A stretch of 32,397 bases of DNA from Pseudobdellovibrionaceae bacterium (GTDB taxonomy: Bacteria; Bdellovibrionota; Bdellovibrionia; Bdellovibrionales; Bdellovibrionaceae). Under the pieces are notes generated by a model. It was not told where the DNA came from. It made no database searches and worked only from the letters and a program-made list of their open reading frames with translations. The stretch covers positions 1 through 32,397 of the forward strand of contig JANWYU010000188.1 of assembly GCA_025055135.1 (NCBI GenBank). Reading direction: 5' to 3'. The translations under genes and the position numbers were made by a program. Positions within the stretch are counted from its first letter, which is position 1, and each line of letters starts with the position of its first letter. Positions 21,261 to 32,117 of the stretch are shown piece by piece.

Positions 21261-22937
21261 CTAAAATCCAAATAATCGCGAAAAATCATTAAAAAGAGCA
21301 AAGCTCATCAGAGCCAAAAGCAAAACTAGCCCCACTTGTTGGGCAATTTCCATCTTGCGCATAGATATTGGCGCCCCGCGAATCGCCTCTAAGGTATAAA
21401 AGAGCAAGTGCCCACCATCTAAAACAGGTATTGGTAACAAATTAAGCACAAACAAATTAATGGAAATGATGGCCATCATGTTGAAAAAATGATACCAACC
21501 CATTTTAAAAGACTGACTGGCTACCTGCCCAATTGAAATGACCCCACCAATAGTCTTAGGAGAAATTTTATTTTGAATTAACCGCACAAAACTCATCACT
21601 GTCATGAGTGATACTTCATAACTTCTGACTATTGCTCGAAGAACACTTTCTCCGAATGAGTAATCTACTCGAGTAAAGCTTGGTTCCACGAAATCAATTA
21701 AAGGCAAAATCCCCACGGTTTTGCGCTTTTCAGCCTTGCCCTGTGGAGTCAGCAATTCGGTTTCCTGAGGCTGTATTTTAAAAGTAAATTGTTGGGCATC
21801 ATCACGCTCTACAACAAACTGTAAAGGCTCGCTGTAATTGTGGTTTTTAACTAAATTTAATACGTCCTCCCATTTGGAAACATTGTGTCCGTTGATCTCA
21901 ATAATTTTATCATAAGGTTTCAAGCCCGCTGCTTCAGCAGGAGAATCCTTAACCACCGAATAAATATAAACAAGGGGTTTTTCAATTCCAAATGAGTTCA
22001 AAGAAGGCATTATGTCCGGCAGCTTTATATTTAATGTTACCTTTTCTTGAGCAGCCTCTGAATGACCCTCTGATCCGCCCTGCTGTCGAAGAATTTCAAC
22101 TGTTACTTCTGCTCCCTGCAAAGCAACTAATTTAGGTTCTAGATCCCGGAAAAACTTTATGGGCTGATCATTAATGGCTACCACTCGATCTCCCGTACGA
22201 AATCCCATTTGATAGGCCAACGTTTTCCCAGTAACCCCTATCACCGGACTCCACGAATCTAATGAAACTCCCTCAATAGCACCGATTTCTGACCGCAACT
22301 GGAGCGGATTGGGATTAGGAACAAGGCGAGGAACCGCTTTAACAACTATGGGTTGCTCAAAACCCAATCGGGTTACCTGAAAACGTACTTCCTGGTTCAC
22401 TTTGTGAGTCAGTACTTCTTGCACCTCATCCCAAGAACGCACCTGCTGATCATCGACAGCCACAATGAGATCACCAGAACGGAAACCCACTTCATAAGCG
22501 TAGCTTTGGGACTCAATATCCCCCAACTCTGCCCCACGCCGTACTTCACCACTCCATGCTAAAAAGAAAAACACCACTCCAGCAAACAAGAGATTCATAA
22601 TGGGACCAGCTAGTACAATAGCGATCCTCTGCCCCACAGGCTTGTGCAAAAAAGATACTTTTCTTTCTGAGGCAGGTACTTCTTTTCCTACCTCATCCCC
22701 AAACATTTTTACATAGCCCCCCAACGGAATCAGAGAAATCGCGTATTCCGTATCTCCCCATTTCTTTTTAAAAATCTTCTTGCCAAAACCCAAACTAAAA
22801 ACCTCCACCTTCACGCCACACCAACGGGCAACCAGAAAATGGCCCAATTCATGTACAAAAATTAAAACCCCCAACAAAATAATAAAGGGAATAATTGATG
22901 AAAGACCCATTTCAAAATAATTTAATAAGCTGTCCAT
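21261..22937 (-). CDS. rseP: Site-2 protease RseP-like, with three PDZ domains
   Basis: Intramembrane zinc metalloprotease that would cut membrane proteins such as anti-sigma factors. The zinc site is HELGH (H29, E30, H33) in the first helix and D507 in LPIPVLDGGH. Between the two catalytic membrane regions lie three PDZ-like repeats at about 136-205, 228-305 and 322-400, each with a G-F/L-x-x-GD or PYDKI core followed by IxGxxV-type strands. E. coli RseP has two and is about 450 residues; this protein is 558. The start at ATG 22937 is the family-like one; a TTG at 22967 is also in frame. It is the likely third gene of an RHS protein, small protein, rseP, tsaB run. Confidence 0.92.
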   Translation of the reverse strand: MDSLLNYFEMGLSSIIPFIILLGVLIFVHELGHFLVARWCGVKVEVFSLGFGKKIFKKKWGDTEYAISLIPLGGYVKMFGDEVGKEVPASERKVSFLHKPVGQRIAIVLAGPIMNLLFAGVVFFFLAWSGEVRRGAELGDIESQSYAYEVGFRSGDLIVAVDDQQVRSWDEVQEVLTHKVNQEVRFQVTRLGFEQPIVVKAVPRLVPNPNPLQLRSEIGAIEGVSLDSWSPVIGVTGKTLAYQMGFRTGDRVVAINDQPIKFFRDLEPKLVALQGAEVTVEILRQQGGSEGHSEAAQEKVTLNIKLPDIMPSLNSFGIEKPLVYIYSVVKDSPAEAAGLKPYDKIIEINGHNVSKWEDVLNLVKNHNYSEPLQFVVERDDAQQFTFKIQPQETELLTPQGKAEKRKTVGILPLIDFVEPSFTRVDYSFGESVLRAIVRSYEVSLMTVMSFVRLIQNKISPKTIGGVISIGQVASQSFKMGWYHFFNMMAIISINLFVLNLLPIPVLDGGHLLFYTLEAIRGAPISMRKMEIAQQVGLVLLLALMSFALFNDFSRLFGF

Positions 22938-23014
22938 GACGCTCAATTTGCCGATTTTTTTATACAAAGTCTAGGATTTTGATAGGAATCCCGCCCCCTT
23001 CGCCTTTTGACAAA

Positions 23015-23299
23015 TTAGCGCGATCCCTCTTGATTCGCACCTGAGGAAGAATGGTCCGAATCTGCTGCCGGAGCCTTAGTGCGGTCAAACAAATTGCCCT
23101 GCCAGCCATAACAATCAGCACACAATGGTTTGGACTCCATAACGTATTTAACCCCTTCATATCGATCATACTGGCAAAGATTTTCCATGTAAGCATTGTA
23201 TTGACCACATTGATTTACATCATTGGGATCTGAACCCGCAGCCGCTGTTTCCGCCAATACGCCAAAATGCATGGATAGAAGCAAACTGAAGATCAACAT
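23015..23299 (-). CDS. Small secreted cysteine-containing protein of unknown function
   Basis: I do not recognise this 94-residue protein. A signal peptide (hydrophobic 1-15, cut likely near residue 16-21) is followed by a mature part with four cysteines, C31, C42, C60 and C63 (the last two as CxxC), and a Ser/Asp/Gln-rich hydrophilic tail. Two disulfides or a metal site are possible. ATG has AAAGGAGC a few bases upstream, a strong ribosome site that supports it over the overlapping frame at 22960-23208. It starts 15 bases after the stop of the RHS-repeat gene, so the two are probably expressed together and may work together. Confidence 0.7.
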   Translation of the reverse strand: MLIFSLLLSMHFGVLAETAAAGSDPNDVNQCGQYNAYMENLCQYDRYEGVKYVMESKPLCADCYGWQGNLFDRTKAPAADSDHSSSGANQEGSR

Positions 23300-23314
23300 A
23301 AGCGCTCCTTTGTG

Positions 23315-24829
23315 TTAATTATAAATCTCCGCAGTAGCAGGGGCTATGATATCCATTAAATTGTTAAATGTAGAAACAATTTGGCTAATTACGGTAACAT
23401 CCTGATCCTTGCCAAAGTGGTCAATTTCTCCGTTGGGCTTATAATGAACAACGACCCTACCCACCTTAGGTCTTTCTAAAATTTTGGGCTTCGAGAAACG
23501 CTCATCATACTCAATTCTAACTTCTTTTTTTGTATGATCGCGCACCGAAATGATTCGACCCTTTTCGTCATGATCTAAAAAAACCACGCGACCATCTGAC
23601 TCCTCGGCCCTAACTAAATTTAATTTTTTATCATAATAAAAATGCGTTACTTTCGACATCCGCACCTTTCCGGAAGAATCAAGATATCGAGTCTCAACCT
23701 TGGCAACCTTGTTATGATCCTTGTGGTATTCATAGACCAACTCTATCCCCATAGAGGTTTTTTTAATAATTTGCCCAAGCTTATTATATTCAAACTTTTG
23801 TACATCCCCATTACGTTTTATAACCACTGGACGATTAAAAACTTCGTGGTATTCAATATCAATCGTTTGATTATTTACCGTTGACATAACCCTACTTAAA
23901 AACAGTTCCCCACTACCCTGGCGGCGTCGGAACCAAAATTCATGTTTGGCTTCGCTCACCACCTGATTTTTACACTTTTTTACAACATTGGCCCAATAAT
24001 GAAGTTCTCGATCTTTTTGAGGAAAATCATACTTATAGTATTCAGTGCATCCCTCCCGATCATGAAACGCGGTTACCCAGTCGTTCTGATCATCGTAATC
24101 CAATTTTATTGTTGATTTATCGGGATAGGTTACCTTGATGAGATTATGAAAATTATTATACTCAAAGAGATACGTGTTCCCCCAAGCATTTTTCACTTTG
24201 GATAAATCCACCAAATTTTTATACTCGTATTCAACTTTTTGATTATTGGGTCCCACGATTGATCTTACTTTACCAGTACTTGGATAGTAAGAAAAAGAAA
24301 GCCGCCTACCCAAATTATCCACAACAAATTTTAATTTATTTTCTTGATACTCAAACTTAAGATAATTTCCATTTTTATCGTAGATATTGAGTAACTTACC
24401 CGCCAGATCAAATTTCATGGAGCTACCATCTGGTAACTGACGCACCAAATTTTCTTTAGTAACCGTTAAAATATCATTATGATTAAAGCGAGACCGATAA
24501 CTGGCTCCCTCTTTGCGATGCTTACCATTTTCTAACTGGAATGGGGTTTCCTGTCCTGCTCCACATTCAATAATTTTAATTAAATCACTTTGACCAATCA
24601 CAGCCTGAGTTTCGAAATTAGAACACCAACCAAATCCAAAAATACCTTCATAAAGCGATCGACTATTATAGGTGCGCAGAACCTTAAGATCATAGCCCGA
24701 TCCGCCCACGTCCATATCGATCCACGTATTGGAATAGTTAGCATTTTTCATATCAACAATGGCAAACGTTCTGATGGAGAAGATAGAAAAGATTACAAAG
24801 ATGATGATAAAAATAAACTTAGCTCTCAT
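23315..24829 (-). CDS. Secreted RHS/YD-repeat protein, compact, without toxin domain
   Basis: Exported protein with a signal peptide (hydrophobic about 5-22). Residues about 35-75 resemble the domain that opens many RHS proteins: a conjugated GSGYDLKVLRTYNSRS followed by GIFGFGWCSNFE. After it come degenerate YD repeats, for example YDKNGNYLKFEY, YNNFHNLIKVTY, YNKLGQIIKK and HDEKGRIISV, to about residue 470. RHS proteins usually exceed 1000 residues, form a closed beta-shell and end in a variable toxin; this one has 504 and no visible core-ending motif or toxin, so it may form an open partial shell. It follows the Tad operon by 55 bp on the same strand and precedes a small secreted protein gene. 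Confidence 0.88.
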   Translation of the reverse strand: MRAKFIFIIIFVIFSIFSIRTFAIVDMKNANYSNTWIDMDVGGSGYDLKVLRTYNSRSLYEGIFGFGWCSNFETQAVIGQSDLIKIIECGAGQETPFQLENGKHRKEGASYRSRFNHNDILTVTKENLVRQLPDGSSMKFDLAGKLLNIYDKNGNYLKFEYQENKLKFVVDNLGRRLSFSYYPSTGKVRSIVGPNNQKVEYEYKNLVDLSKVKNAWGNTYLFEYNNFHNLIKVTYPDKSTIKLDYDDQNDWVTAFHDREGCTEYYKYDFPQKDRELHYWANVVKKCKNQVVSEAKHEFWFRRRQGSGELFLSRVMSTVNNQTIDIEYHEVFNRPVVIKRNGDVQKFEYNKLGQIIKKTSMGIELVYEYHKDHNKVAKVETRYLDSSGKVRMSKVTHFYYDKKLNLVRAEESDGRVVFLDHDEKGRIISVRDHTKKEVRIEYDERFSKPKILERPKVGRVVVHYKPNGEIDHFGKDQDVTVISQIVSTFNNLMDIIAPATAEIYN

Positions 24830-24884: not shown

Positions 24885-25772
24885 TTAAACCCTGATTGTC
24901 ACAATTTTTTTGATAACAAGACCCCCTACAATAATGAGACCAAATATCATGATTAAAATGATCAACCCTAAAGTCGAGGTAAATAACGGTTTTACATACC
25001 CAAAATCAAGAAAATAAAACATCATCAGAATAAAAAGTGGTGTGGCAGAAACAATGAAACCTTGCGTTCTTCCTTGCATCGTCATTGCCTGAATTTTTTG
25101 TTCTACTTTTTGCCTTTCCCGAATTACGGTAACAATAGTCGAAAATGTTTCAGCCAGATTACCGCCTGTTTCTTTTAAAATGTTAATGCTTAAAACGAAC
25201 ATCTGCACATCAGGAAGAGGAATCCTCTCGCCCAAATCCGTTAACGCCTCCTCTAATGTTCGGCCCAGACGGTTTTGCGACAAAACATAGTTAAACTCCT
25301 GGGCGATAGGATTGGGTAAATTATCAACAACTCTTTCTAGAGCTTGTGTTACCGATAGTCCCGCCTTGATTCCATTGGCCATAATGGTTAACCCATCCAC
25401 CATTTGATTAGTAAATAAGCGACAGCGCTTTTGATATAGACTATTAAAATACCAATAGGGAACCTGACTCACAAACCACCAAGAGCCTAACATAAGAACC
25501 ACTCCCAAAATAAAATTCGGCCAAACTAAGAAAAACAAAATAAGCGGTGGACCCAAATTAGCCGCCAACAGCACCCGGTCCAACGTACGATCATCAATGG
25601 GGGTAAACATATAGTCCATAAGTTTCTTGATCTCATCTCTTTTTTGAAATGCTCTTTTAAAAAATTTTTCCTCTAAGCGAGGATATAAATTATAGGCTGC
25701 TACAAAAACTGAGAGGAAAACAGCTGGATAAGAGAACCACGGACTCGATAAAAATGATTGAACGGGATTCAT
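24885..25772 (-). CDS. tadB: Tad pilus assembly membrane protein TadB (T2SSF family)
   Basis: Inner-membrane platform protein of the Flp/Tad machine, contacted by the CpaF ATPase. It has 295 residues. Hydrophobic segments lie near the N-terminus, at about 68-108 and as a C-terminal pair (about 238-292). The cytoplasmic T2SSF domain (about 120-235) has GIKAGLSVTQALERV and the ILKETGGNLAETF motif. ATG has GGGAG nine bases upstream. The usual partner TadC is not found after it; the next gene is the RHS protein. It could therefore act alone, or with a TadC encoded elsewhere. Confidence 0.92.
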   Translation of the reverse strand: MNPVQSFLSSPWFSYPAVFLSVFVAAYNLYPRLEEKFFKRAFQKRDEIKKLMDYMFTPIDDRTLDRVLLAANLGPPLILFFLVWPNFILGVVLMLGSWWFVSQVPYWYFNSLYQKRCRLFTNQMVDGLTIMANGIKAGLSVTQALERVVDNLPNPIAQEFNYVLSQNRLGRTLEEALTDLGERIPLPDVQMFVLSINILKETGGNLAETFSTIVTVIRERQKVEQKIQAMTMQGRTQGFIVSATPLFILMMFYFLDFGYVKPLFTSTLGLIILIMIFGLIIVGGLVIKKIVTIRV

Positions 25773-25777
25773 GACTA

Positions 25778-28033
25778 TTAACTCCCTGTTAACTTGATTT
25801 TGGGCATCACTGGTGTTTGAATTTTTTGCGCAGGTTTCGCTTCGCCCGACCCACCTGCTGCCGAGGAAGGATTGGCATTAACGTTACCTCCTTCATTAGA
25901 GAAAATGTCCCGCGGAACAATAACTCCTTTTTGCTCCAATTTTTCAATAAAAGTCGGAATCATTCCCATAGCCTGAAATTGTCCCACAATCCGACGATTT
26001 TTATCATATCCTGTTTCCTTAAAGCGAAAGATCTCTTGCATTGAAACAACATCACCCTGCATCCCCACTACTTCCGTGATGGAAACAACCTTTCTTGAAC
26101 CATCCGACAATCTGGAAATTTGCACAATTAAGTTTACAGCACTGGCAATCTGCTCGCGAATTGCACGAACCGGCAAATCCATTCCCGACATCAAACATAA
26201 TGTCTCCAAACGGGCAATACATTCTCTTGGGCTATTGGCATGAGTGGTAGTCATTGAACCATCATGACCGGTATTCATCGCCTGCAACATATCCAGGGCG
26301 GCACCATCCCGAGTTTCCCCAACAATAATACGATCAGGTCGCATCCGTAAGGCATTGCGAATTAAGTCTCGAATGGTAACAGCACCCGTGCCCTCCATAT
26401 TAGGGGGGCGTGTTTCTAACCGAACCACATGCTCTTGCTGTAACTGAAGTTCGGCCGCATCTTCTACAGTAACAATTCTTTCGTGACTAGGAATGAAAGA
26501 GGAAAGCATGTTGAGCAGACTCGTTTTACCAGATCCAGTTCCTCCTGAAATAATTATATTTAATCCATTTTCCACGCATATTTTAAGAAAATCGATCATG
26601 GGCTTAGTCAAAGATCCGTACTGAATATACTGTTCCGCAGTTATTCCGCCCTTACGGAACTTTCGTATGGTCAAAGCAGGCCCATCAATGGCGAGTGGCT
26701 CAATGATTGCATTCACCCGACTACCGTCTTTGAGTCGGGCATCAACCATTGGCGTTTTTTCATCAATCCGCCTACCAAGCGGTGTTACTATTCGCTCAAT
26801 CACGTTTCGCAAATGGGCGTTTGAAGTAAAAGTAACGGGGCTTAATTGGATTTTCCCCCCTTTTTCGATGAAAATTTTGTTATAACCATTGACCATGATT
26901 TCTGTTACCGAAGGATCGGCAAGCAAGTCCTCTAAGGGGCCAAGGCCTAGTGCCTCTTCCAACACCTCTTTAATCAATCGAGATCGTTCGTCACGACTGA
27001 TCCCAGGCGCCTCCCGATCAACAATTTGAGTAATTTGAGCAGTGGTCTTATCGCGCAACTGTTTTTCCTTTTCAGGATCCCCCTGAGTATCGGCAACCCC
27101 CTTTTTTAAATCCATAGCCTTAATAAGCTCATTGTGTATGCGCATCTTTAAAATATTTCTCGGATCAGATTCCGCTGTGACTCCTCGAAACATATGCTGC
27201 AGAGAAGAGCGATCCTCACCCCCGGTGTCGGACTTGGCCTGCGGTTTAATTTGAATTGATGATTTGTTACTCTGTTTTAATTTTAAAAGTAACCCACCAT
27301 TTAATTTCCGAACGATGTCAAAGTATCCAGAAGTTACCATTGACTGCGGCTTCAATTGAGCGGCAGGGATTCCAGATGCCAAAGCCTGTTGATGCATTCC
27401 ATCGTCAAGAGCAATGACTCCCAACACATTGACTTTAAAGCTTTGCGCTAATGTTTGCGGATTAATTCCTCCCTGATAAAAACGGTTTATGATTAAATGA
27501 AACATTTCAAGCGGAAATGTTAGTCGCAAGAGATCTTGAATCAATCGCTGGGTTTGATTTAAAACCAAAAGATCGGGAGTGGCAACAACCATTCCCGCCG
27601 TACTTTCCTTCAAAATAGAAAGTTGCAATTCCTGCAGCTCACTTCCAAGGTCTACCACAATAATTGGGTAACAAGTAGATAGAAATTCTAATGGCTTAAG
27701 TATCTGAGATCCGGTAACCTTCAGATTTTCCTCTGGTCCTCGCACTGCTCCAATAAAATGAACCCCTGATTTATGCTGAGTAACCAACTGACCTAAATTG
27801 GAAGGGCTAAAACTACCCGAAAAAGAAACAACTTCAGCAAGTGTCTTTAATGGCTTGGTACCAAGTAACACATTAATGTCGCCAGCAGACTTTTGATCGG
27901 CATCCAAAATTAGAGCCGGCTTCTTTAATTCCATGGCAAAAGCCCAGGCCAAGTTAACCGCAAAATGACTTTTTCCTACTCCGCCTTTTCCCCCTAACAC
28001 ACTAATTATATGACACTGACTGGAAATTGCCAT
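25778..28033 (-). CDS. Fused CpaE/TadZ (ParA-like) and CpaF/TadA pilus ATPase
   Basis: One 751-residue protein joins two proteins that are usually separate. Residues 1-255 are a MinD/ParA-like ATPase: deviant Walker [10 protein letters not shown] (14-22), D44/D46 and a second Asp D128 (VVDLG), as in TadZ/CpaE, which places the pilus at a cell site. After a linker (about 256-330), residues 331-700 are a secretion ATPase of the CpaF class: Walker A GGTGSGKT (497-504), Asp box VEDAAE (523-528), Walker B RIIVGET with E573 and His box with H598. A Gly/Ala/Ser-rich tail closes it. No stop or frameshift is seen at the junction. GGTGAG upstream, part of a 15-bp duplication, is the ribosome site. Confidence 0.94.
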
Positions 28034-28063: not shown

Positions 28064-29632
28064 TTTAAAGCGTTGCTTAATTTTTTCTGTTCCCTGACTA
28101 GCCGAGGCTTTAATCAAAGGCGTTACAAACATAACAAACTGACTTTGATCCCGATTAAAGGTGCGATCAGCATGTAAACTAATAATGGCATTGCGCCCTT
28201 GGGGCATATTTTTATTATAACCAGAAGATGAGCTGTTGTTAATAAGACCTGCAAATGCGGCACTTTGACCATTACGCACAGTTATCTCTGTTTTCACTTC
28301 ATTTTCTGTAAAATTCGCGTTGGCCAAGGCAGAATCCACTTTGGTTTGGATTTTCAAATTAATTAAGTCAGACCGCTCTCCGGCAATCTCAGCAAACACT
28401 GATAAATTAAATCCCACGTTGCGGAAGGTTTGTTGAACCGCTCCCCCTTGCTGAATGATGGCTGAATCAGGAACGCGAACTGTGGAACTCATTTTTCCTT
28501 CACTAGCATTTTTCAAAATAATGGAGCCTGATTTTAACACCCGGGCATAGCCATGGGTTTTCCCCCAATTCAATTTGGGTAACAAGTTGTCGATGACCCC
28601 TGTAATGGTAGTTTCCGATCCTTCATTGGTCCCCGTACTCGACCGAAATGTAATTGCGGAATTATCTTGCAATCCCGGCATAAAGGAAAATAAAAAACCC
28701 TTTTTATAATCCTTCACCATCTCAACAAAATGCACCACAATTTGGATAATTTTGGGGGGCGGTGGTGGTGGATCGGGAGGCGGCGGACGCACTTGAATTA
28801 AATTCACAATACCTTCAAGAGCAATTTGCGGAGCTTTTTTCAACACTTGATCTTGCTCTGATTTATCAGTTGTAATTTCTGGAAAATAAATCCTTGCAAT
28901 TTTTTCTATGTTATCCCTTTCCTCTTTAGAATTCACAAATCCCTGAAGAAAAATGGCTCGATTAATGGCCTTAACCTCCACCTCAGGGTTATTAATTTCT
29001 CGCGCAATTAGCTCAGCCACCTTTTTTAGAGCATGTGGAGCTACTGTTACCAAAGATATCACCTGATCGGGATAGTTACTAATAACATTGTATATTCTTC
29101 CAATTTCTTTCGGAACAATGACCTGGCCATCCAGAACAATCTTATTATTAAGAATCTTAATTTGAATGCCATCGATATCGGCCAACAGGCTTTGGATTTC
29201 GCGATATACCTGATCCAATTTACTTCGATTAACATCTAATCGATATTCTATCAAAATACGTCCCTTTAAATCGGTAACAGTAAGAACCCCCTGACCCTCT
29301 TTCAATGGATTAAACCGAATGGAATTTATCTTTTTCAAATAAACGGCATTCGCTACATTTTTGTAATCCCCCTTGAAATGCACAACGGCAGGAAGTTCAA
29401 TAGGTAACTCTTCGTCATGAAGCGCAGAAACTGTTAAATTCAAAAATCTTCGCTTATAGGGTACACGCTTTTTATCTTGTATCTCATCTTCTTGAATCAC
29501 CTCTGCAGTTTTACTGCGAACCACCATAGTATTGGGCAATTTTTGATCTACATTCTTCACCAACTCCTCCGCCCCCAAAAAACGAGGTATGAGAAGTAGC
29601 AAAACCACTGGCCAAATGATTGTTTTTGTCAT
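28052..29632 (-). CDS. cpaC: Tad/Flp pilus secretin, CpaC/RcpA-like
   Basis: Outer-membrane channel subunit of the Tad machine. It has a signal peptide (1-21), an N-terminal pilus-type beta domain (about 60-135), a BON-like region (about 140-275), a proline run (283-293) and the C-terminal secretin domain (about 294-510) ending in MFVTPLIK. The secretin core contains GQSAAFAGL, but the usual VPxLGxIPxLGxLF segment is replaced by an unrelated Asn/Gly/Arg-rich stretch (about 467-495). The ATG overlaps the cpaB stop in ATGA. Ends at a TAG inside the 15-bp tandem repeat. Family call is supported by domain order and operon. Confidence 0.9.
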   Translation of the reverse strand: MTKTIIWPVVLLLLIPRFLGAEELVKNVDQKLPNTMVVRSKTAEVIQEDEIQDKKRVPYKRRFLNLTVSALHDEELPIELPAVVHFKGDYKNVANAVYLKKINSIRFNPLKEGQGVLTVTDLKGRILIEYRLDVNRSKLDQVYREIQSLLADIDGIQIKILNNKIVLDGQVIVPKEIGRIYNVISNYPDQVISLVTVAPHALKKVAELIAREINNPEVEVKAINRAIFLQGFVNSKEERDNIEKIARIYFPEITTDKSEQDQVLKKAPQIALEGIVNLIQVRPPPPDPPPPPPKIIQIVVHFVEMVKDYKKGFLFSFMPGLQDNSAITFRSSTGTNEGSETTITGVIDNLLPKLNWGKTHGYARVLKSGSIILKNASEGKMSSTVRVPDSAIIQQGGAVQQTFRNVGFNLSVFAEIAGERSDLINLKIQTKVDSALANANFTENEVKTEITVRNGQSAAFAGLINNSSSSGYNKNMPQGRNAIISLHADRTFNRDQSQFVMFVTPLIKASASQGTEKIKQRFKIGE

Positions 29633-30540
29633 CGTCCTGAGCTTCCTCGATACTGAGGCGGAATGGTAACAGCAGGAGCCGTCGACGGCATTCCTGGTGC
29701 GCCTGGAGCTGCTACTCCAGGTGCCGCTGATGCTCCTGGATTCGCCGAACCAGTGATAATTCCTCCGTAACTGAAGGCAATCCCTTCTGCCGATGATGAA
29801 GGCATACGAGGAACCAATGATTTGTCACTAGGATTTCTTAAAGTAAAAAATATGTTACCTGGGCTGGTAGATAGTATGTAAACGAGATCTTGCGCCTCTT
29901 TGGGGCTAACCTCAATGGTTATTGAGGTATACTTGGTGTCGCCAACCAAATTGGTTTGCATAACACTCTTTGAATTTGGGTCATATTCAATCACGCGTGG
30001 TAAATTATTCACCACATTTGACCCAGTTGCCAAAACCGCAACATCAGACAACATGGTTATTACATCTCGTTTGGCCTGGATCCCCTTGCCGGAGTCAATA
30101 GCTACAATAATATCCACCCGATCGCCGGGTCGAATCAGCTTGGCTACCCCCCGAGTCTCGTCCACTGGGATGGTTAATGCCCGTTTAGTAGGTGACACCT
30201 GCAACGAAATTCCGGTATCTGCTCCTGGTTGCAGTAATTTATTAAATAAAATTTGTTCTCCCTTCTGAATTGGAGTGGCAGCAACTTGTCCAATAATCAA
30301 ATCTGGCTTATTGACTGCCCCTGGTTGCACAAAAATTTTTGGAATTTCAACCATGTCCAAAAGATCATCTTCAATGGTTTGCAGCTCCAGAATGTTTTTT
30401 TTGGCAACAACAACAGTTACCCGGTCTCCCAATTCTCGCTCGACCTCCGCCTTACGCTCTTGTGAGTAGCTGAACATCAAGAACGCTGCAACCAACCCAG
30501 CAATGAGGGCCACTAAAAAATTTTTACCATCCTGATTCAT
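29629..30540 (-). CDS. cpaB: Flp pilus assembly protein CpaB/RcpC
   Basis: Periplasmic component anchored in the inner membrane by residues about 8-24. A SAF-type domain follows (about 41-110: VVVAKKNIL, then VQPGAV), and the CpaB/RcpC-specific region begins RALTIPVDETRGVAKLIRPG (about 117-136), continuing with RVDIIV. The C-terminal 40 residues are Gly/Ala/Pro-rich and probably disordered. It has 303 residues and precedes cpaC with a four-base overlap. The role in guiding pilin or the secretin is from the family. Confidence 0.93.
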   Translation of the reverse strand: MNQDGKNFLVALIAGLVAAFLMFSYSQERKAEVERELGDRVTVVVAKKNILELQTIEDDLLDMVEIPKIFVQPGAVNKPDLIIGQVAATPIQKGEQILFNKLLQPGADTGISLQVSPTKRALTIPVDETRGVAKLIRPGDRVDIIVAIDSGKGIQAKRDVITMLSDVAVLATGSNVVNNLPRVIEYDPNSKSVMQTNLVGDTKYTSITIEVSPKEAQDLVYILSTSPGNIFFTLRNPSDKSLVPRMPSSSAEGIAFSYGGIITGSANPGASAAPGVAAPGAPGMPSTAPAVTIPPQYRGSSGR

Positions 30541-30555
30541 GAATACCTTCCGTGG

Positions 30556-31104
30556 TTACCGTGAGCAACGACTATTCAAGCAAATTCCATAACCCGTTTT
30601 TAGCCAAACAGTAGGAATTGCTTCTTCAGTATACACATCTTTGGCCTTTCCTGGATCTTTTATTTGATAAACTCGACTATGGTCATTACGATTATCGTTT
30701 CTTTCTAGACCGGTCTTCAGATCTGTAAATTTGATAGGCCGCTGAGTAGCATAAAATCTCTCAACCGAGCCTGCTCCCTCCTCAATAACCACATGAAAGC
30801 GATATCCTATTTCATTAAAGTGAATGGAAGGATCCGATGTCACCTCATCTCTCAATCTATTTAAGTTACTACGATTACGAAACGTTTCAAACGCGTAATT
30901 CCGGGCCGCAATTGAGTTAAGAATTCCAGAATGAATAACTCCAAAAAATCCGAGAGTAAAATTGATCAACAGGGCAAAACTTAATAAAACTGGCGCAATT
31001 TCAACACTAGAAATCCCCCCCATCTTTCTTCGAATCAATGCTCTAACTAGAGAAGGTTTTCCATTCTCTGTGGGCACCAGCTGAGGGGTCCTTTTAACAT
31101 CCAT
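30556..31104 (-). CDS. TadE-like pseudopilin
   Basis: The first about 25 residues are hydrophilic and basic, followed by RKMGGISSVEIAPVLLSFAL, which resembles the TadE signature of Gly before an Ser/Ala-x-Val-Glu and a membrane helix (about 35-58). A periplasmic domain of about 120 residues follows with two cysteines near the end. The start at ATG 31104 has AGGAG six bases upstream; the ATG at 31110 would abut the ribosome site. It overlaps the preceding gene by about 11 bp. Likely a minor pilin cut by a prepilin peptidase, but the peptidase gene is not in the window. Confidence 0.75.
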   Translation of the reverse strand: MDVKRTPQLVPTENGKPSLVRALIRRKMGGISSVEIAPVLLSFALLINFTLGFFGVIHSGILNSIAARNYAFETFRNRSNLNRLRDEVTSDPSIHFNEIGYRFHVVIEEGAGSVERFYATQRPIKFTDLKTGLERNDNRNDHSRVYQIKDPGKAKDVYTEEAIPTVWLKTGYGICLNSRCSR

Positions 31105-31822
31105 TATCATCTCCTAAAAAGCCAAATTGTTGAGAGTTCCCAATGGGAAATTCAGGATCGGAAAGAACTCCCCTCCAAAGATTTCGATTGGATGCCCTTT
31201 CCTGAAAGAAGTTCAAACATTCTCTTTGGCTTGGTTCACGAATCATAAATGCATTAATGTAGGTGGTGGGCGGGTCTTCAGATTCTTCCGATTGTGTACT
31301 ACCCAAACTGGGCAAATTGATTTTTAACACATTAAACGCAAGCCTTATACTAACCCCGCCAAATTTGCCACGCACCTGGGAGTCAGAATTGCCAAACTCC
31401 TGATTAAAATCGGAAATGCTACTTGATCCACTGTTACCCTGTCGAACTAAAATCCTTTGAGGCTCTTCAATACGGAACCATGAGTTCTTAAAAATTCTAC
31501 CAATTGGTCCTTCCTGATTTAATAGAGAACGGTATTTATCAACCGCCACCTCCATTTGACGTTGAGCAGACTGATTGCCCGCCAAGTGGGCTCTAGAAAT
31601 ACTGTAAGCTACATACTGGGTAACCTCTACAACAAATAAGGAATAGGCAAGAGCGAACAACACAACGCTCATGCCACCGAATATAACCAAACTAAAAATA
31701 AAATCGGTAAGCACGACCCCTGAATATGTTACTGGGGCTTTAATGAAAGTACGCGTTCCACCGACTCGGGATGCAGTTGAGGTATCTGTTGAGTAAAGCC
31801 GCAAGGTTGCCACACTCCGCAT
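31094..31822 (-). CDS. TadE/TadF-like membrane protein, start uncertain
   Basis: A single strong membrane segment (about 37-65) begins TYSGVVLTDFIFSLVIFGGM, similar in layout to TadE/TadF-type proteins with Asp in place of the conserved Glu. An exported domain of about 170 residues follows. As annotated it overlaps the Flp-like gene by 94 bp. If that overlap is not real, a GTG at 31714 would start it just before the membrane segment, but its spacing to an upstream AGGGG is only two bases. Specific function not recognised; position in the Tad operon supports a pilus role. Confidence 0.68.
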   Translation of the reverse strand: MRSVATLRLYSTDTSTASRVGGTRTFIKAPVTYSGVVLTDFIFSLVIFGGMSVVLFALAYSLFVVEVTQYVAYSISRAHLAGNQSAQRQMEVAVDKYRSLLNQEGPIGRIFKNSWFRIEEPQRILVRQGNSGSSSISDFNQEFGNSDSQVRGKFGGVSIRLAFNVLKINLPSLGSTQSEESEDPPTTYINAFMIREPSQRECLNFFQERASNRNLWRGVLSDPEFPIGNSQQFGFLGDDNGC

Positions 31823-31974
31823 TGTATCATTCCATTAAGCCGTTCCCAAGGCTGGAGGGTAAAATTTTGAACAAAACGCGACCTAAGTAAATACTCTCGC
31901 ACCAGAGAACTCATTGCCAAAACCACCACAAGTAACAACACGTACTCCACCACGCCCTGGCCTGATTGCGCCAT
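31729..31974 (-). CDS. Flp-type prepilin-like protein
   Basis: A short leader MAQSG is followed by QGVVEYVLLLVVVLAM, which matches the class III signal of Flp pilins, in which the peptidase cuts after Gly and Glu is at +5 with a hydrophobic helix after it. ATG at 31974 has GAGG six bases upstream. A longer start at ATG 32082 also has GGAG at good spacing and would give a 117-residue protein with a leader of about 40 residues. The mature part (about 76 residues) has two Cys. It may be the main pilin or a minor one. Confidence 0.68.
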   Translation of the reverse strand: MAQSGQGVVEYVLLLVVVLAMSSLVREYLLRSRFVQNFTLQPWERLNGMIQCGVWQPCGFTQQIPQLHPESVERVLSLKPQ

Positions 31975-32117
31975 CAAAGACCTCTTCAATGGCAGCCTTT
32001 GGGCCATGGGCTTATTTGGTGGGCACTTTACAGTATGGTGAATATGACTAGGAACGTACTCCTGATATCCCCCCTTTAACATTTCTGCATCTCCAACCTA
32101 CGAATAGCCTCCACCTG

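What the first reader, a model, noticed from the sequence alone, without database searches (positions are those of the whole stretch)
23015..24829. RHS-repeat protein and small secreted cysteine protein attached to the Tad operon
The compact 504-residue secreted YD-repeat protein has no toxin end and is followed 15 bp later by a 94-residue secreted protein with four Cys. They begin 55 bp after tadB, in the place where tadC is expected. An exported shell plus a small partner or cargo delivered or displayed through the pilus machinery is a possible new system; this is inference.
Basis: partly seen in the sequence, partly recalled or inferred. Interest (0 to 1): 0.6.

Follow-up and report, generated by a model that had tools for sequence, protein, structure and literature searches.

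The report
Bdellovibrio hit locus beside Tad pilus
The two genes are the window organism's version of the known 'hit' (host-interaction) locus, which in the bacterial predator Bdellovibrio sets pilus behaviour and the choice between hunting prey and growing alone; checking it also showed that a supposed non-coding RNA of that locus almost certainly encodes another small secreted protein.

Summary
In detail: tadB, 55 bp, a 504-aa secreted RHS/YD-repeat protein, 15 bp, then a 94-aa secreted protein with four Cys. It is not a new system. It is the Bdellovibrio hit locus: the RHS protein is the Bd0109 orthologue (44% identical to the HD100 protein, same slot after tadB) and the small protein is the positional, very divergent counterpart of Bd0108, the lifestyle-switch protein. 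All 39 order/family relatives examined keep RHS downstream of tadB, as do 17-18 of 19 sampled loci elsewhere in the phylum; 37 of 43 relatives have a small secreted ORF right behind it. Published work on HD100 shows co-transcription with tad genes, direct Bd0108-Bd0109 binding, and pilus and growth-mode phenotypes. The window version differs in details: Bd0109 lacks a roughly 53-aa segment kept by other relatives (its nearest relative shares the loss), and the small protein has two extra Cys and is not recognised by the NCBIfam Bd0108 model. By-product: the locus's published 261-nt 'non-coding RNA' covers a conserved 66-codon secreted-protein ORF under purifying selection; both published RT-PCR primers lie inside it. 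In the window's organism this gene sits elsewhere, beside alaS.

The parts
23315..24829 (-). Bd0109 orthologue: secreted RHS/YD-repeat protein, 504 aa, four invariant Cys (69, 89, 261, 286), conserved C-terminal helix; lacks a ~53-aa segment near residue 101
23015..23299 (-). Bd0108 counterpart: 94-aa putative secreted protein with DPN motif (residues 24-26), CxxC (60-63), LFxxT..P segment, Ser/Gly-rich tail ending in R, and two extra Cys (31, 42)
   Evidence: homology rests on position and motifs, sequence signal weak
24885..25772 (-). TadB (T2SSF domain), 295 aa, directly upstream
25778..28033 (-). fused CpaE-like/CpaF (TadZ-TadA) ATPase, 751 aa
28052..29632 (-). CpaC/RcpA secretin
29629..30540 (-). 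CpaB/RcpC
30556..31110 (-). TadE/F-like pilus protein (184 aa), assigned by position and synteny
31094..31822 (-). TadE/F-like pilus protein (242 aa), assigned by position and synteny
31729..32082 (-). small pilin-like protein (117 aa; sub-threshold Flp1_like match, Pfam E 0.02)
21261..22967 (-). RseP-like M50 protease with PDZ domains, follows directly; takes the place where most relatives carry the second small secreted ORF

Best explanation
It is the hit (host-interaction) locus of a Bdellovibrio relative. The last two genes of the Tad (type IVb pilus) operon encode a periplasmic RHS-fold scaffold (Bd0109) and a disordered secreted partner (Bd0108). Most likely mechanism: the half-size RHS shell sits in the periplasm next to the pilus machinery. 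The disordered partner binds it weakly through its N-terminal half, with the CxxC disulfide holding a short helix-prone core. The ratio and state of this fuzzy complex set pilus extrusion and retraction, and pilus state feeds back on the decision between prey-dependent and prey-independent growth. Shown by others in HD100: binding, co-transcription, pilus and growth phenotypes. Shown here: orthology and synteny of the RHS gene, and order-wide recurrence of the small secreted gene. Inferred: that the pair does the same job in this organism.
For: Bd0109-type RHS gene in 40/40 genomes of the family/order and 106/114 of the phylum, downstream of tadB in 39/39 order loci and 17-18 of 19 others; a single copy in the window's genome. 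Small secreted ORF 1-130 bp behind it in 38/44 loci including the window, C-x(1-5)-C in 30/38, chance 3% and 0.6%. G105 has the length and coordinates expected of HD100: bd0108 at 96873-97178, 101 aa, C56xxC59, D24..Q101 as published (PMC4267844). Window Bd0109 is 44% identical to it. DPN motif in 17/38 small proteins against 1.05 expected, CxxC in 20 against 1.7. NCBIfam hit_Bd0108 matches 11 of 31 aligned members. Operon, interaction and phenotypes: PMC3818213, PMC4267844.
Against: The window's small protein is not hit by NCBIfam hit_Bd0108 and scores only slightly above its own shuffles against the family profile (2 of 1000 as high). It has four Cys instead of two and no basic n-region. Its Bd0109 lacks a segment of unknown role. 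Nothing shows that this organism is a predator.
Confidence: 0.9

Rival explanations
1. New exported shell-and-guest system: the RHS protein is a cocoon that carries the small Cys protein and delivers or displays it through the Tad machinery.
For: RHS fold shared with cargo-enclosing Rhs and Tc cores; small secreted partner adjacent in nearly all loci.
Against: About 500 aa against about 1000 in closed Rhs cores; no autoproteolysis motif; AF2 of the read-through chain shows no ordered guest; HD100 partner stays disordered and binds at 45 uM, about 3:1 (PMC4267844); deletion phenotypes are in piliation and growth mode (PMC3818213).
Confidence: 0.06
2. Rhs polymorphic toxin with a small downstream immunity protein.
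For: General Rhs layout with a small gene downstream.
Against: The C-terminus is highly conserved across the order, not hypervariable; no toxin domain above cut-off in Pfam or NCBIfam; the partner is itself secreted; the gene is core and, in the window's genome, single-copy.
Confidence: 0.01
3. RHS is the Bd0109 orthologue but the 94-aa protein is an unrelated secreted gene that took Bd0108's slot.
For: Weak sequence similarity, four Cys, no NCBIfam hit.
Against: Same 15-bp spacing, DPN, CxxC, L(F)xxT..P and Ser/Gly tail ending in R shared with relatives; nearest relative G011 is intermediate (30% identity, CVDC, KLFDKTNP).
Confidence: 0.1

Closest known systems
hit locus bd0108-bd0109 of Bdellovibrio bacteriovorus HD100 (PMC3818213, PMC4267844)
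   Same: Gene order, strand, 15-bp spacing, Tad operon context, RHS protein with the same invariant Cys and C-terminal end, small secreted CxxC partner.
   Different: Window Bd0109 lacks ~53 aa; partner has four Cys and is very divergent; the second small secreted gene is not at the locus; rseP follows directly.
T6SS Rhs effector cores and TcB-TcC toxin shells
   Same: RHS/YD-repeat beta-shell fold (best PDB matches 8qjd, 7q97, 8qja).
   Different: Half the length, Sec-type N-terminus, no toxin domain, no autoproteolysis motif, conserved C-terminus.
Small secreted gene arrays beside Bd0109/Bd0103 homologues in wastewater Bdellovibrionales bins (PMC10469934)
   Same: Two or three short secreted genes near the Bd0109 homologue were already noted there.
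   Different: That work used BLAST hits at E up to 10; no link to the published sRNA, no coding test and no motif was given in the passages read.

Membership tests
Bdellovibrio hit locus (Bd0108/Bd0109) | RHS/YD-repeat secreted protein orthologous to Bd0109, about 550 aa | tested here: met
   44% identity to the HD100 protein; 504 aa because of a ~53-aa deletion shared with G011
Bdellovibrio hit locus (Bd0108/Bd0109) | Located directly after tadB at the end of the Tad operon | tested here: met
Bdellovibrio hit locus (Bd0108/Bd0109) | Small secreted CxxC protein immediately downstream | tested here: met
   (CADC at 60-63)
Bdellovibrio hit locus (Bd0108/Bd0109) | Small protein matches the curated Bd0108 equivalog (NCBIfam NF053838) | tested here: not met
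   HD100 Bd0108 matches at 1.9e-29; 11 of 31 relatives match; the window does not. The 94-aa protein is therefore called a positional counterpart, not a Bd0108 equivalog
Bdellovibrio hit locus (Bd0108/Bd0109) | Intrinsic disorder of the small protein | tested here: inconclusive
   pLDDT below 50 throughout the small protein in the read-through model; the alignment for that part was thin
Bdellovibrio hit locus (Bd0108/Bd0109) | Bd0108-Bd0109 binding, and effect on pili and growth mode | not testable with these tools
   needs purified proteins and mutants
Rhs polymorphic toxin | Hypervariable C-terminal toxin domain after a conserved cleavage motif | tested here: not met

The most novel reading that the evidence does not exclude
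The hit locus encodes not one but two small secreted Cys proteins of related design (Bd0108: CxxC...L(F)xxTNP; second ORF: single C...(L)FxxTNP, Ser/Lys/Gly tail), and the 'regulatory sRNA' reported for the locus is the mRNA of the second. Since that RNA rises in every bd0108 mutant tested, the second protein may be a compensating or opposing ligand of Bd0109. In the window's clade it has been moved away from the locus, next to alaS, while the Bd0109 insert was lost.
Probability: 0.4. Interest if true: 0.7.

Novelty: new member of a known kind. Interest (0 to 1): 0.42.

Why it matters
It turns an 'unknown RHS plus peptide' into a member of the best-known lifestyle switch of bacterial predators, and shows that Bd0109 is a core gene of the Tad locus across the whole phylum rather than a Bdellovibrio peculiarity. 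The reinterpretation of the locus's sRNA as a secreted-protein mRNA makes a long-open question (how hit mutations signal host independence) directly testable with one tagged gene.

Tried and rejected
BLAST of the 94-aa protein in 40 genomes: no significant hit outside its own genome, only a 0.4 hit at the right place in G011; replaced by a positional search. Rfam on the window and 8 relatives: nothing, so no known RNA family or c-di-GMP riboswitch at the locus; the highly expressed riboswitch merRNA lies elsewhere in HD100 (PMC3627812). Toxin/immunity reading: rejected. Guest-in-shell by AF2 of the read-through chain (the two genes are in the same frame): the small protein stays disordered. 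A first impression that only the window lacked the ~53-aa segment was an alignment artefact: G011 lacks it too and merely has a longer upstream start. A family profile alone does not prove Bd0108 homology for the window protein.

Full report
OBSERVATION. The reading of the sequence is accurate. On the minus strand: tadB ends at 24885, 55 bp follow, then a 504-aa ORF (24829-23315), 15 bp, then a 94-aa ORF (23299-23015) with an AAAGGAG site before its ATG. The long protein has RHS_repeat and DUF6531 matches, the small one has no match in Pfam or NCBIfam. No terminator-like site separates them from tadB and promoter-like sites are at shuffle level. A TadC-like gene is elsewhere in the genome, on contig C99; in the relatives examined the place after tadB is held by the RHS gene.

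IDENTITY OF THE RHS GENE. A protein search of 39 relatives from the same family and order found a homologue in every one, about 550 aa and 24-50% identical. In all 39 the order is flp/TadE/TadF-CpaB-CpaC-CpaE/F-TadB-RHS as far as the contig reaches and the genes are detectable; the RHS gene directly follows tadB except in L057, where 1.9 kb intervene. A profile search of the phylum found it in 106 of 114 genomes. In 17 of 19 sampled loci outside the order it follows tadB, in one more it follows the CpaF gene directly with no tadB detected (L127), and in one (L136) no Tad gene was found nearby. Named relatives are Bdellovibrio. In Bdellovibrio bacteriovorus this gene is bd0109 of the hit locus (PMC3818213). 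Genome G105, unnamed in the tool, has one contig of 3,782,950 bases, which I recall as the length of the HD100 genome, and carries the published landmarks of HD100 at the published coordinates (below), so I treat it as HD100. Its Bd0109 is 44% identical to the window protein.

IDENTITY OF THE SMALL GENE. The window protein has no significant BLAST relatives, but position finds them: 38 of 44 loci, window included, have an ORF of 60-160 codons with a hydrophobic N-terminus starting within 130 bp of the RHS stop; shuffled DNA gives 3.2%. In 30 of 38 a C-x(1-5)-C follows, with 0.6% in shuffles; CxxC occurs in 20 and DPN in 17 (1.7 and 1.05 expected from composition). In G105 the ORF is 101 aa with C56, C59, D24 and Q101, exactly as published for Bd0108. 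The window protein shares SDPND, CADC, NLFDRTKAP and a Ser/Gly tail ending in R with G011 (CVDC, KLFDKTNP...GAR) and others. Its sequence score against the family profile is weak (2 of 1000 shuffles as high) and NCBIfam's hit_Bd0108 does not match it although it matches 11 of 31 relatives. I therefore call it the positional counterpart of Bd0108, not a proven equivalog. Two or three short secreted genes near Bd0109 homologues were noted before in wastewater Bdellovibrionales (PMC10469934), so order-wide occurrence is extended here rather than discovered.

WHAT IT DOES. In HD100, bd0108 and bd0109 are co-transcribed with tad genes, the two proteins bind, bd0109 could not be deleted, and bd0108 deletion or its 42-bp deletion changes piliation and allows prey-independent growth (PMC3818213). 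Bd0108 is intrinsically disordered with a CxxC disulfide and binds Bd0109 at 45 uM, about 3:1, through residues 24-66, staying disordered (PMC4267844). Here, AF2 gives a confident all-beta RHS fold for the window protein (pLDDT 88.6) with a C-terminal helix, matching Rhs cores of T6SS effectors, teneurins and Tc toxin shells, with roughly half the length of the Rhs cores. The C-terminus is among the best conserved parts and four Cys are invariant in 41 sequences, which speaks against a polymorphic toxin. When the two genes, which are in the same frame, are read through as one chain and folded with 15 paired rows, the small protein stays below pLDDT 50. This agrees with a disordered partner and gives no support for a folded guest inside a shell; it is weak negative evidence because the alignment of that part is thin. 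I commit to the pilus-regulator model; that the window's pair does the same in its own host is inference from orthology.

HOW THE WINDOW VERSION DIFFERS. Its Bd0109 lacks about 53 residues near position 101, which 39 of the 40 other aligned sequences have (48-55 aa); the nearest relative, G011, lacks them too, so it looks like a clade feature and not an assembly error. The small protein has two additional Cys. RseP follows at once, so there is no room for the second small gene described next.

BY-PRODUCT: THE HIT LOCUS sRNA. In 28 of 44 loci a second ORF of 45-117 codons, usually with a signal-like N-terminus, one Cys and often a C...(L/M)FxxTNP motif, starts 360-860 bp after the RHS stop. In G105 it is 66 codons at 96483-96683 (-). 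Capeness et al. reported a 261-nt 'small non-coding RNA' at 96455-96716, higher in all bd0108 mutants (PMC3818213). The ORF lies entirely within it, and both published RT-PCR primers match exactly at 96555-96574 and 96633-96652, inside the ORF. Between G105 and G006 the ORF shows 15 synonymous and 3 non-synonymous changes (dN/dS 0.04), and between L041 and L042 17 and 6 (0.09); with about 78% of sites non-synonymous the chance is 6e-8 and 2e-7. It is intact in all ten Bdellovibrio-genus loci. So it is very probably a protein gene. Profile comparison with the Bd0108 family aligns 18 columns around the Cys and the T-P motif (probability 93%, pairwise E 4e-7), suggestive of kinship but short. In the window's genome the gene exists on contig C95 (E 1.5e-5; 72 aa) and in G011 on contig C49 (70 aa), in both near the alanyl-tRNA synthetase gene. 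I found no report of this ORF in the papers searched, which cover open-licence papers only.

VERDICT. Observation confirmed; interpretation right about pairing and Tad linkage, wrong about novelty and unsupported on cargo. New member of a known kind, with a clade-specific deletion and a relocated accessory gene.

Noticed in passing
L118:4484-4684 (-) (G105 = probable HD100, 96483-96683); window genome L116:1444-1662 (-) / G000:C95: Conserved small secreted single-Cys ORF lies wholly inside the hit-locus 'non-coding sRNA' of PMC3818213; both RT-PCR primers fall within it and dN/dS is 0.04-0.09. In the window's clade it sits beside alaS instead.
   Followed up: yes
window 25778-28033 (-): CpaE-like (ParA/MinD-type) and CpaF (T2SSE) ATPases are fused in one 751-aa protein; a similar length (about 720-760 aa) is seen in the relatives.
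   Followed up: partly
L085:5829-7541 (-) (G002 second copy): A paralogous Bd0109-like RHS protein with no Tad gene detected around it, again followed within 12 bp by an 85-aa secreted CxxC protein (CRDC): a second hit-like pair detached from the pilus operon.
   Followed up: partly
window 23315-24829, near codons for residues 101/102: About 53 residues present at this point in 39 other relatives are missing in the window and in G011 only; the role of the segment is unknown.
   Followed up: partly
G000 (window genome): Small genome (1.99 Mb in 231 contigs, 92% complete) compared with 2.4-4.3 Mb in its family; lifestyle unknown.
   Followed up: no
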